From NCBI GenBank assembly GCA_032622095.1, contig CP136064.1:176468247-176532246 (forward strand): a stretch of DNA of 64,000 bases, written 5' to 3'. The notes below the pieces were generated by a model. That model made no database searches and had not been told where the DNA came from. It was given only the letters and a program-made list of their open reading frames with translations. Of the stretch, positions 47,301-56,300 are shown piece by piece. Origin of the DNA: Siphonodentalium dalli (taxonomy: Eukaryota > Mollusca > Scaphopoda > Gadilida > Siphonodentaliidae). Positions within the stretch are counted from its first letter, which is position 1, and every line of letters starts with the position of its first letter. A program made the translations under genes and the position numbers.

Positions 47301-50300
47301 AGGGGCATGTCGCCAAAGAGGAGAAGACTTCATATAAGCCCTCATGCTTGTTGTCTGATCCTCATTTCCATACATTTATCTCTTATATGTTATATATTTA
47401 TGTCATTTGTGTATTATGTGTATTATGTTTGGATTTGGAAATAAAAATATGTTTTACACTAAATTCATCCTCTGAGGACCTCATTCTGCTTAGGCCTTAT
47501 CTTCTGGGAAGAATTTATATTCTAAAATTAACATTGTTATTAGTTACCTTTTCCATTCTGTTCAGTTTCTATATTCCCTAATTTGCAGAAGATGAATTGC
47601 ATAATCGAGGTGGCTAATGGGTGAACATCACCAACTTCAACTTGGGAACTTCAATCTGATCCTAGGTCTCTCATAGCAGTTGAGACCTAAGCAAAATGAG
47701 GTTCCATGAAGGTTAATTTGGTGATGCTAGCCCACTTGGCGCTAACCCTGTATCAGAGGCATGTGATGGAACTTCTTCTTTGCTAGCATCTGTCTCAACC
47801 GATATAACTGACTGGCGAAGACCAAGTATATTCAGTCTATTTATTTGCTATCTGTGTGTTATTTTCACATTCAAACAACAGGCTTTCATGTCCATGTTCA
47901 CTATTCTGACCCAAGAGGGTTGGATAGAAATCGTAGAAGGTGTCATGCGCAGTTGTAACAACGATCTCCTCATCCCAGTGGTTGCTGTCTATTTTATTTT
48001 ATTTCATCTGTTTGTTTCTTTGGTAAGTGCAATGCGGATTCGGTCACCTCTGCTTCATTGCACAATAAGCTACCATAAACATGTATCATCTGACATCACG
48101 CATCAAGTCTTAACCCTTTGAGATCTAGATACTCACTAATGAGTAGTTGGTTGATTACCATTGATTAATTTGTAGGGATATTCAGCTAATAAGTTGAACA
48201 AACAACTTCAGGACAGGCTGTTTGTTATTAGTTGAAATTCCTCACAAATGAAGAATGGACCATTCCAGTATATACTTTTTGAACTGAATGGCAGAGTCCA
48301 TTTAGTAATCAAAGGGTTAAATTAACAGTCAACTCATTTGGTCAAAAAAGAGATATTTGATGACAACAATTTAGTTTTCTCTATGATAAAGCTTTGAAGA
48401 AAAATAATGTCGACTGCCAGTTCAGCTATTCTTTTTGTTATGTTACTTTTAAAGATAGAAATCTTTTCTGAAAAAAAAAAATTGACCATACCTCATCCAC
48501 GATCATGTCTATGGAACTTCAAGACAAGATATGAATTCCAAAGTGCAAAGCTGACTTTCCAGGAGTTACAGTCATAAAAAGTGACACTTCCCTCAACCCT
48601 TTCAGTGCCAAGTCCGATTTTTGTATCAACCCATATTTCCTTGATCATTTTTCAAATTTATTGATTATAACAATGTGATACATTGTTGGAAAGAGCTCTT
48701 AGAGCTCTTTCCATCAATGTATCAAATTATTATAATCAATAAATTTGAAAAATGATCAAGGAAATATGGGTTGATACAAAAATTGGTCTTGGCACTGAAA
48801 GGTTCATGACTGCAGCTTCCTGATCTTTTTTGCGAAAACCCTGTGCCAATGCATTCTCTTATATATATGAGTCTCCCATAGGGAACCTCGCATATATACG
48901 AGAGTACATTGGCCTAACAATATTTATCTTGACCTTGTAAGCCAGTGCATTCTCATGATTTGAATGAGTTGACTTGTCATCCTCCTAGTCCCTGCATTTT
49001 TATAGCATGTTCTTTTTATTGGTCAAGTGTACTACCTTTCATGCAAATCCATTGGTTATATCCTAACTATATTGGGTAGAATGTTTTCATCCCTGTACAG
49101 CCCTGTATAGGTATTTGAAGTTAAATTTCATGTTGATATCATAGATATTCTTATTGGGTCATGCAAAGTTAAATTCACATTTCTCATGCCTCAGGGGGGA
49201 GTTTTAATCAGTACGAAATAATTGTAGTACGTTTTTATACAAACATGCATGAAAGTGAGATTGAACAGACCTGTTTTGCTTGATTCAAATTTCCATTTCA
49301 TTACTGCAATTGGTGTTAAACATATGATGTATTTTGTCTAAAATCTCAGTAAAAAATATGTCAATGAAACTTTAGTGGGTGATATTTGACAAAATAAATC
49401 ACATGTAATCTATCAGCTAACTTTTCATGGACATGTGTTTTCGCCATAGGCAACTGAAATTAAACCTATAGCAGAGGAGGATGGCTTCATTGTCATGTAC
49501 CCCAGAATTAAACAAATTAATGTTAAAAACTCTCGCATGCTTTTTAAATTGTTTTGGCCTGAGAAGTTGGAAACTGACTATATGCATGGCCCAATATACC
49601 AAAATTTCTGGATTTTCCTAGAAATTGAGAAGGACATAGCAATAAAATATATAATGTAGCTCAAATTGCACATTAGAAACAAGAAATAGACTCAAATTAG
49701 TCCAAATATATTTGCATTTCCTACATGTACAGACGTTTAAAAATATGAAAGGAGATATTGGTATAAATTGCTTAATATTACTTTATTTATATGAATACTA
49801 CAAAAAAGATTGGCAATGTAATTAAACTTTCAAGGGGACTAGCAGGTATAACGTCACTTAACAGTTTCATGCATGCTATTGAAAGCTGACATCTTAATAA
49901 ATTGTGCATGTGTCACTAGAAAACAGTTTTTTCCCCCTGTAAAGTACCCCTGAATAAGTGTTCAGCTTTCTGATGATGCTACATGTGTATGGTATATTAT
50001 TGTGTGACTGGGGTGGGCGTTTTACAGTCTTACAGTTTGTACCTTGTTATGACAAAACGCTTTGCATGAAAACTTGGTTCCTGCTATAAACTAAGATGTA
50101 TAACCATTGTCCTTGCTTTACCTTTGCATCTATTTGTGAGAGTTGTTTCCCCTGTATAACACTTTGTTGAATGAAATGGTTTCCCTGTATACAAATGTAT
50201 ACACATTGTGACTTACATAGATATTGATTTAGTTAAAACTTTGGACTCAAATTCAATTTGTATCTGAATATTATGCAAGTGTCTCATGACATGTACTCCA

Positions 50301-53300: not shown

Positions 53301-56300
53301 ACTGATTATCAGTTCTGTTCTGGTATGAGTAACAAATTGTGCTGTTTTATGGTGATATTCAAGCCTTGAAATAGTGTGTCTGTCATTTGCAGAATGAGGT
53401 CCCCAGAGGGCCAAATTCACCTCATTCTGCTGAGGGGTAAGCAGAATGAGGTCCCCAGAGGGTGAATTTGGTGATGCTAGCCCACTATGCGGGATAGCAT
53501 CACTAAATGCACCCTCTGGGGACCTAACTCTGCAAATGACAGACACACTATTTCAAGGCTTGGTGATATTTCTGGCAAAGTTTACACTATGAACATAAAA
53601 ACTTTGGAGTTCAGCAAAATGGCTTCGTGGGCCTTTTATAGTCTTTAATCTATTTGACCAAAGTCAATTGTAATGGACTCTTGAGTTCGCTCTGGTGTAC
53701 AATAAAAACAACAATGATGCATCTCGATCCATAAATCAGCTTTAAATTTGTTGCTTGGAATTAACAAGTGCATATATTGACTGATCAAGGCTGCCCTTTT
53801 AACTGATATATGAGAGTTTTGAACTTGAGTGGCTCAACTTGAATACAGTAATGCTCTAAATAATCGACTCCTTAACCACAGCAGAATTATGGGTAACTTT
53901 TCAGGATTTATTCGGAAATATGACTTGTTGCCATTCATCGGAAAGCTCTCGGTGAGAGCTTTCCGATAAATGGCAACAAGCCATATTGCTGACTAAATCC
54001 TGAAAAGTTACCCATAATTCTGCTGTGGTTAAGGAGTCGATTATTTAGAGCATTACTGTATAAATATTTTGTTTAGCAGAATATGTATAAAAAATGAACT
54101 TGCATTAGAAAAGTGCTTCTTTTGGGAATCTCATCTTTAACCCTGTCATGACGGGAGCTGCGCTGGTGCGACATTAAGGAAATTCCTGAAATTTTGCGAA
54201 AACCCTGTGCCAATACATTCTTTTATATATGCAAGTCTCCCCAGAGAGTCTCGCATATTTAAGAGAATGCATTGGCCTAACAATATTTACCTTGACCTTG
54301 TAAGCCAGTGCATTTTTCTTGTATATATGAGGCTCCCTATGGGAGATTCGCATATTTAAGAGAATGCACTGGCACAGAATTTCTCTGATACTAATTTACA
54401 TTTACATCGTTACTCATAAAGGCCATTGGCCCATTACATGAGTGGTATCATATAGATACTAATACAGATAATGCTGCACAGCCCAGCTCCCGTCATTAAA
54501 GGTTTAAAGCTGCTTTTATATTATTTTTCACCAAACTCTGAAATTAATAATTGAGACTCTGACATAAGGGCACAATATATCTGTCATTAAGTTTTCAATA
54601 CTATAAAGATATATAAAGGGTAGCCTTGTATTAGATTATGTGTACACCCTACACTAACACCAGTTTCTTTATATCTTCAGAGTCGCTGTTTGTGGAGAAG
54701 TTTGTGCCCACCTGTATAACACTACTAAATGTACAATCTTATTTCAAACTAAATCTCGTCTTGTGTTCTCTTTCTTCTCAGGCTTTCATGTCAATGTTTC
54801 AAATCTTAACACAAAAAGGCTGGATAGAGGTTATGCACGTAACAATGTACGAGACTAGCGAGCATCTCGTACCGCTCGTTGCAGTCTATTTCATATTCTA
54901 TCATCTATTCGTTACCATGGTGAGTAACGGGGCCATTGTTTTCCCTGCAAGGTAGTAATGTGTCAGATCTCACTGTAGTCAATGTTATTTATTTTTTATT
55001 GAGACGTCAATTTCATGACTTACATTGGGGCATATTGCTTCTCTATGCTTTTCTGAACATTTTTATCCCATTGAAAATGTAGGTTAACTCATTGCAAAGT
55101 ACACATTTCCTGTTACTAGTGGTAGGCATCTTCTGTTTGCTGTTTGTCTTTGGTGTATGTCGAAAGTTATAGATCAATTCATATCCTATTTGAATGTTTA
55201 GCCCCAATGATTGTAAATGTAGCACCTTATTGTTTGTTTTCGTTACATGTAGTGTAGTTTTATATCCGAAGATATTATATCACCCATGCTATACTATAAC
55301 AGAAGAATTAAGTTGATCTTGGGTGAATTTGAATCCTTATTCCTGAGCGTTTATGATTGAATCAGTTTGAACTGCAGTTATCGTAAAAATAAATCTCATG
55401 AGAGCCAAAGGAATTGAGTGAAATGTATACTCCAGCCTCAAGAGTTCAATAGAATATTAGTTATTCCGTTTGATGTATTTGTTCCACAGCCTTGTTTTCA
55501 GTAAGCCTAACATTTAACTCTCAAGTTTCATTGATAAATAATAATTGACAGTAAATAGATAGAACGACACATGTGTGTGAACTTGTTAACGTTATTGCAT
55601 GAGTTTGCTGTGACGAGTGCAATAACGTTAATATGTTCACAAAACTTTGTTCTATGTTTATTGCACACTCTGAAGATTGTAGCTCCTATATACTAAAATT
55701 TAGGTCGATATTGTTGTATGTAATTAAACAAACGTCTGATTTATGCAGGCTATACCTCATAATTTAGTAAAGATATTTTCTGTGTCATTGCTGTATTTTC
55801 ATTTGAGTTAACCCCCATTTACCTCAAAGATGATCATTGCCATAAGCTTTCACTGATTACTGAGTCTAGGAGATCAATTATAACATTTTAAGAAATAAAA
55901 TTAATTCTGATTGAGATGCATATTTATACAACATAATCACTGATTCTCTCAATAATTCTCTTATAAATGTGTCTATTATATAAACATAACCACATGCACA
56001 CATCCCGTATTGTAGTAGTAATTTAGAAACTTATATGTCATTAAAGAGTGACTCGATGGAGTGAACTTTTAGAGTTTTAGTGTAGTGATAAAAATCTAGT
56101 TAAATTTGGGCCTTAATTCACCCAATTGTTCTGACATCACATGGTCTTCTATCAATAACAAATTGTTGGATTTAATAGGACACAAACTGTAACTTGAGGT
56201 AAATTTCATGATAAATTGTATTTTTTTGGGAAATTGTAAGTTTTTTCTTGTTCTAATCTTGGTTTGGAACAATGACGTCATCTTGTAAAGGCATATTAAT

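What the first reader, a model, noticed from the sequence alone, without database searches (positions are those of the whole stretch)
47882..54919. Tandem alternative NALCN pore exons encode Glu versus Lys selectivity filters
Two exons of 47 and 46 codons, both phase 0/0 and both starting AFMSMF, encode the domain II P-loop. One reads TQEGW, the other TQKGW. Domain I has SQEGW, so one splice form contributes E-E and the other E-K to the four-residue filter. EEEE resembles calcium channels and EKEE resembles sodium-selective or blocked-pore behaviour. Alternative Glu/Lys filters in NALCN are known from other protostomes. This window shows the genomic basis in this species, including the order (Glu first, Lys second) and 6.8 kb spacing. 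Because both exons are multiples of three, reading frame does not enforce exclusivity, so some other mechanism must.
Basis: partly seen in the sequence, partly recalled or inferred. Interest (0 to 1): 0.85.

Follow-up and report, generated by a model that had tools for sequence, protein, structure and literature searches.

The report
NALCN exons 15a/15b: Glu-or-Lys filter switch
This animal's sodium-leak-channel gene carries two alternative pore exons that would put either a calcium-channel-like or a sodium-channel-like residue in its ion filter; it is a clean new example of an arrangement published in 2013, not a new phenomenon.

Summary
Exon 47882-48022 (47 codons, TQEGW) and exon 54782-54919 (46 codons, TQKGW) have AG/GT flanks, are phase 0/0, and sit between exons ending at 44561 and starting at 62822. 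Of 30 exon segments of this gene used as queries in 174 kb, only these two match each other as a duplicate. I extended the gene beyond the window. It is a NALCN orthologue with no second copy found; domain I gives E (SQEGW), domain III E (LSLEGW, no Lys partner found) and domain IV E (GEDW), so the forms are EEEE and EKEE. A Hox cluster with a Lox5-type gene points to a spiralian. Senatore et al. 2013 (PMC3557258) already describe exon 15a (Glu, upstream) and 15b (Lys, downstream), mutually exclusive, in flatworms, molluscs, annelids, echinoderms and hemichordates. Frame, short-intron and U12-donor mechanisms do not fit here. The 15a acceptor is weak and 15b's average, which suggests regulated acceptor choice (inference). 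Transposon-like inverted repeats in the three flanking introns are a possible but weakly supported contributor. Verdict: real, ordinary, a new member of a known kind.

The parts
35791..35933 (+). NALCN exon with domain I P-loop, SQEGW (filter residue E, human E280 equivalent)
   Evidence: boundaries from junction scoring
44430..44561 (+). NALCN exon upstream of the pair (domain II S5 side, ends FETFPQ), phase 0 donor
47882..48022 (+). Exon 15a: 47 codons, domain II P-loop with TQEGW (filter E, human E554 equivalent) and first part of S6
47862..47881 (+). Acceptor of 15a: purine-interrupted tract, only 1 of 22 constitutive acceptors of this gene scores lower
54782..54919 (+). Exon 15b: 46 codons, domain II P-loop with TQKGW (filter K) and first part of S6
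54762..54781 (+). Acceptor of 15b: pyrimidine-rich, mid-rank (10 of 22 constitutive acceptors score lower)
62822..62896 (+). NALCN exon downstream of the pair (rest of domain II S6, [13 protein letters not shown]), phase 0 acceptor
   Evidence: donor at 62896 read by eye (the junction scorer chose a poor alternative there)
46805..46960 (.). Palindromic short transposon-like repeat (family A) in the intron upstream of 15a; related copies near 53866-54040 and 60008-60200
44746..44834 (.). Inverted-repeat element (family B) in the intron upstream of 15a; relatives in the next two introns

Best explanation
The window holds the first part of a NALCN gene (sodium leak channel) of a spiralian animal with the known tandem alternative exons 15a and 15b. 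One pre-mRNA yields either a channel with filter E-E-E-E (15a) or E-K-E-E (15b). Shown here: both coding exons, their splice sites, their phases, the other three filter positions and no second gene copy at the sensitivity used. Taken from published work on the same exon pair: snail cDNAs contain one or the other exon, with tissue bias. Inferred: the Lys form favours monovalent ions. Inferred, with moderate confidence (about 0.4), for the choice: regulated recognition of the two acceptors. The 15a acceptor is weak and the 15b acceptor average, so 15b would be the default and 15a would need activation, or repression of 15b. Exclusivity would be maintained by that regulation and by selection against channels with two or no domain II P-loops, since those transcripts stay in frame.
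For: Exact exons, splice sites and phases. NALCN chains are the best PDB matches for both forms, E 7.6e-45 (15a) and 1.8e-52 (15b), against 3.4e-19 and 3.1e-21 for the best other channel. 25 of 27 genome-wide matches to human NALCN lie colinearly on one strand at C4:176488303-176615502; the other two are 26-27% identical segments of long open frames elsewhere. Domain III is LSLEGW and domain IV is GEDW. Same order, residue types and domain as exons 15a/15b of PMC3557258. Differences between the exons fall mostly at third codon positions (13, 9, 28 at positions 1, 2, 3) and 13 of 27 identical residues use different codons, as expected of two old coding exons under constraint. The adjacent 60 nt of intron agree at only 27% and 37%. 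Acceptor scores.
Against: No RNA evidence from this species. The splice-site scores rest on 22 introns of one gene, out of 30 junctions attempted. The regulatory step is not tested: protein-binding motif counts near the exons were not compared with chance. NALCN currents of the snail EEEE and EKEE forms could not be told from background in the 2013 study (abstract), so the selectivity difference is unproven.
Confidence: 0.95

Rival explanations
1. Competing intron base pairing: inverted repeats in the introns before 15a (I1), between the exons (I2) and after 15b (I3) pair I1:I2 (looping out 15a) or I2:I3 (looping out 15b), which enforces the choice.
For: Complementary blocks up to 41 (I1:I2), 36 (I2:I3) and 48 nt (I1:I3); 18, 41 and 17 blocks of 13 nt or more against means of 1.2, 1.9 and 1.0 in 30 shuffles each. 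These three are the densest of 32 intron pairs compared in the gene, and 1 of 311 sliding placements of the layout reaches all three counts, namely the real one.
Against: The blocks are copies of interspersed palindromic elements: family A has 1683 candidate places genome-wide; 40 were scored, and the match rows come in pairs on both strands at the same place. Each copy can fold on itself. Inverted-repeat density inside 10-kb windows is not exceptional here (9 to 17 around the pair, against 29 near 130 kb and 18 near 80 kb of the 174 kb). Taken singly, the I1:I2 count is reached in 16 and the I2:I3 count in 12 of 311 placements, the summed count in 3, and placements overlap, so the 174 kb is only about ten independent trials. 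The exon pair is known from several phyla, which repeats of one lineage would not explain (inference).
Confidence: 0.07
2. Only one of the two exons is used in this species; the other is a decaying relic.
For: The 15a acceptor is weak, and loss of 15a is reported in Schistosoma and Helobdella.
Against: Both exons are fully open with intact GT/AG sites, good donors (15a donor outranks 18 of 22, 15b 14 of 22) and conserved P-loop and S6 residues.
Confidence: 0.05
3. Not NALCN but another four-domain channel.
For: Other four-domain channels also match; the best are T-type calcium channels, E 3.4e-19 and 3.1e-21.
Against: NALCN is better by about 25 and 31 orders of magnitude, and the gene lines up with human NALCN exon by exon.
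Confidence: 0.005

Closest known systems
NALCN exons 15a/15b (EEEE/EKEE), Senatore et al. 2013, PMC3557258 (abstract, passages and one section seen)
   Same: Same domain II P-loop and proximal S6 exon, upstream copy with Glu, downstream copy with Lys, single gene, tandem arrangement, splice junctions on both sides.
   Different: The species, the sequences and the intron lengths (3.3, 6.8, 7.9 kb).
NALCN exons 31a/31b (EEEE/EEKE) of myriapods and chelicerates, PMC3557258
   Same: Tandem Glu/Lys P-loop exons in the same gene.
   Different: Those lie in domain III. Here domain III has one exon with Glu (LSLEGW) and no Lys copy was found.
Human NALCN (EEKE), PMC7672056 (passages seen)
   Same: Orthologous channel; the acidic residue four places after the domain II filter residue (human D558) is Glu in both exons.
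   Different: Human has Glu in domain II and carries its Lys in domain III; vertebrates lack the alternative pore exons (passages of PMC3557258).
Docking-site/selector mutually exclusive exons (Dscam type; PMC6071210 and PMC8042237 seen in a search listing only)
   Same: Mutually exclusive tandem exons with complementary sequences in the introns.
   Different: No conserved docking/selector set shown; the complementarity here is from dispersed repeats.

Membership tests
NALCN channel | Best match to NALCN among four-domain channels, gene colinear with it | tested here: met
NALCN channel | Four P-loops with EEEE, EKEE or EEKE filter | tested here: met
   E, E/K, E, E
NALCN exon 15a/15b pair | Two tandem exons spanning domain II P-loop to proximal S6, same flanking junctions | tested here: met
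NALCN exon 15a/15b pair | Upstream exon Glu, downstream exon Lys | tested here: met
NALCN exon 15a/15b pair | Lys exon groups with other 15b exons in a tree | not tested
   No other invertebrate's exon sequences were available to me; supplements not readable
NALCN exon 15a/15b pair | Mutually exclusive inclusion in mRNA | not testable with these tools
   no RNA data
NALCN exon 31a/31b pair | Second domain III P-loop exon with Lys | tested here: not met
   Domain III exon used as query in 174 kb: at E 0.05 or better it finds only the domain II pair
U2/U12 incompatible mutually exclusive exons | One intron around the pair of U12 type | tested here: not met
   The three introns around the pair are GT-AG, none of them nor 22 further modelled introns has an [A/G]TATCC donor, and no CCTTAAC or TTCCTTAA lies in the 40 nt before the three acceptors. 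The junction scorer admitted GT-AG introns only
Docking/selector RNA-pairing exons | Conserved complementary intron elements | tested here: inconclusive
   Complementarity present but repeat-derived; no related species to test conservation

The most novel reading that the evidence does not exclude
In this lineage, palindromic transposon copies inserted in all three introns around exons 15a/15b have become a switch: alternative I1:I2 or I2:I3 pairing loops out one exon or the other, so transposons now control whether the leak channel has a Glu or a Lys filter.
Probability: 0.05. Interest if true: 0.6.

Novelty: new member of a known kind. Interest (0 to 1): 0.2.

Why it matters
It adds a well described gene structure, in a large spiralian genome, to the known set of animals that can switch the NALCN filter residue by splicing. 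The lengths and phases exclude the simple ways of enforcing exclusivity, so the species would be usable for asking how the choice is made. It does not change what is known about the switch itself.

Tried and rejected
Second tandem exon pair at the C-terminus: one search listed two matches overlapping human residues 1480-1536. One search showed them to be two consecutive exons (matches to 1482-1534 and 1530-1597), so rejected.

A Lys copy of the domain III exon, a third domain II exon, or other duplicated exons: none at E 0.05 or better in 174 kb on either strand with 30 of 32 exon segments as queries, apart from 15a/15b (two segments, labelled e3 and e34 in the script, were skipped because my assumed frame held a stop). 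Weak chance-like matches of e1 (E 0.003, minus strand, 5292-5125) and e11 (E 0.04) were not taken as copies. An earlier, looser run had its output cut, which is why it was repeated. Exons of the poorly conserved II-III linker were not all found, so they were not tested.

Minor spliceosome (by donor and branch motifs), short-intron steric block and frame/decay mechanisms: not supported (introns of 3320, 6759 and 7902 nt).

Flanking introns duplicated with the exon: not supported. Matches between the two neighbourhoods (1 kb each side) are dispersed repeats plus the exon itself.

Species identity: a phylum was not reached. No molluscan haemocyanin beta-sandwich and no annelid haemoglobin-linker matches (those searches had no positive control, so they show little). 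A Hox cluster with a Lox5-type homeodomain and KLTGP tail (label recalled, not from a call) indicates a spiralian.

Structure prediction was not run: I judged that a filter-residue difference would not be informative in a model.

Full report
What was checked. The two exons are at the stated coordinates, with the stated lengths, sequences and splice dinucleotides. The neighbours end at 44561 and start at 62822. Single inclusion of either exon, double inclusion and double skipping all keep the reading frame without a stop.

What gene it is. Domain II built with either exon matches human NALCN residues 499-613 better than any other solved channel (E 7.6e-45 with 15a, 1.8e-52 with 15b; the best other channels, T-type calcium channels, are at 3.4e-19 and 3.1e-21). 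A search of the window's own genome (2.23 Gb, 9 contigs) with human NALCN gives 27 matches; 25 lie colinearly on the + strand of contig C4 from 176488303 to 176615502, and the other two are segments of long open frames elsewhere with 26-27% identity. No second copy was found at this sensitivity; the window holds the first part of the gene.

The full filter. I fetched 110 kb downstream, making 174 kb with the window. Domain I reads SQEGW (window 35823). Domain III reads LSLEGW in one exon at about C4:176569249-176569369, and domain IV reads GEDW in the exon at about C4:176593798-176593891. The forms are EEEE and EKEE. In the human channel the Lys is in domain III (EEKE). With 30 of 32 exon segments of the gene as queries against the 174 kb, the only clear duplicate pair is 15a/15b (E 2e-14 both ways). 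The domain III exon finds only the domain II pair (E 0.003); 15a and 15b find the domain III and IV P-loops (E 0.005, 0.009); e1 and e11 each have one weak chance-like match (E 0.003, 0.04). Exons of the poorly conserved II-III linker were not all located.

Age and constraint. The exons share 27 of 46 aligned residues. Codon positions 1, 2 and 3 differ at 13, 9 and 28 sites, and 13 of the 27 identical residues use different codons. The 60 nt before and after the exons agree at only 27% and 37%. This fits an old duplication with both copies kept under protein-level constraint. Against the human segment, 15a has 25 and 15b 27 of 46 residues identical, so identity to human does not say which copy is ancestral. 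Both exons keep an acidic residue four places after the filter residue, where human has D558, one of the residues of a cation site described in PMC7672056.

What animal. A Lox5-type homeodomain with a KLTGP tail sits in a Hox cluster of about 1.5 Mb on contig C7, with two Hox genes whose homeodomains are followed by extensions resembling those of Lox2/Lox4 (labels recalled). This points to a spiralian. I did not reach a phylum: haemocyanin and haemoglobin-linker searches were negative without a positive control, and literature searches did not identify the assembly.

What is known. Senatore et al. 2013 (PMC3557258; abstract, passages and one section seen) describe exon 15a with Glu upstream and 15b with Lys downstream in flatworms, molluscs, annelids, echinoderms and hemichordates, report mutually exclusive cDNAs in the pond snail, and find tissue bias (EKEE higher in brain, EEEE higher in heart and muscle). 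PMC4436565 and PMC6259924 repeat the description (passages). A 2025 paper on NALCN subunit origins (PMC12412391) has no occurrence of EKEE, EEKE, EEEE or 'splic' in its main text. The order and domain seen here are those of the 2013 paper. Its authors could not separate NALCN currents from background, so the selectivity difference remains an inference from filter residues.

How the choice could work. A frame or decay mechanism is excluded by the exon lengths. Steric block is unlikely with 6759 nt between the exons. The three introns around the pair are GT-AG without U12-type donor or branch motifs. Against 22 constitutive introns of the same gene (of 30 junctions attempted; four gave no solution, two were poor and dropped, two are the junctions of the pair itself), the 15a acceptor is among the weakest (1 of 22 lower) with a good donor (18 of 22 lower), while 15b has an average acceptor (10 of 22 lower) and a fair donor (14 of 22 lower). 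The simplest reading is regulated acceptor choice with 15b as default. That is inference from few introns. TCTT tetramers, the kind bound by polypyrimidine-tract proteins (recalled), number 6 in the 300 nt before 15b and 2 before 15a; I did not test this against chance.

Intron pairing. The introns before 15a, between the exons and after 15b contain complementary blocks up to 48 nt, far beyond shuffled sequence, and these three pairs are the densest of 32 pairs of modelled introns over 1.5 kb and within 12 kb of each other (introns missing from the model were not in that count). Sliding the same layout along the 174 kb gives all three counts in 1 of 311 placements, the real one, and an equal or larger sum in 3 of 311; singly, I1:I2 is reached in 16 and I2:I3 in 12. 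Placements overlap, so this is weak, and the density of inverted repeats in 10-kb windows is not exceptional here. The blocks are copies of dispersed palindromic elements. One family has 1683 candidate places in the genome; 40 were scored, and the match rows come in pairs on both strands at the same spot, as expected of a self-complementary short element. Such elements fold on themselves and would not explain an exon choice shared across phyla (inference). I keep transposon-based looping as the most novel reading not excluded.

Verdict. Interest 0.2.

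Noticed in passing
window 46805-46960, with relatives near 53866-54040 and 60008-60200: Short palindromic repeat family (about 160 bp; the scored copies, 91-99% identical, lie on all nine contigs and match on both strands), transposon-like.
   Followed up: partly
window 44746-44834, 48838-48930, 54189-54310, 57093-57820: Second inverted-repeat family (core GCCAATGCATTCTCTTA) repeated in all three introns around the exon pair and elsewhere in the 174 kb.
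   Followed up: partly
window 10341-12179 and 13563-14222 (+): Long open frames that look by eye like a LINE-type retrotransposon (reverse-transcriptase-like text with a YADD motif), upstream of the NALCN start codon at 20051; not scanned against a family library.
   Followed up: no
window 60416-61094: Partly tandem 96-bp unit (60723-60906) with open frames on both strands; related motifs (GGTGATGCTAGCCC and similar) recur in the other two introns around the pair.
   Followed up: partly
L026 and L027 (C7:77673392 and C7:77720570): Two homeoboxes 47 kb apart in the Hox cluster with identical translated open stretches: a recent tandem duplication or an assembly duplicate.
   Followed up: no
C4:275.0-291.5 Mb: Seven matches to the ion-transport domain, five of them within 275.03-275.28 Mb, each covering nearly the whole domain in one open frame: a local cluster of channel genes.
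   Followed up: no
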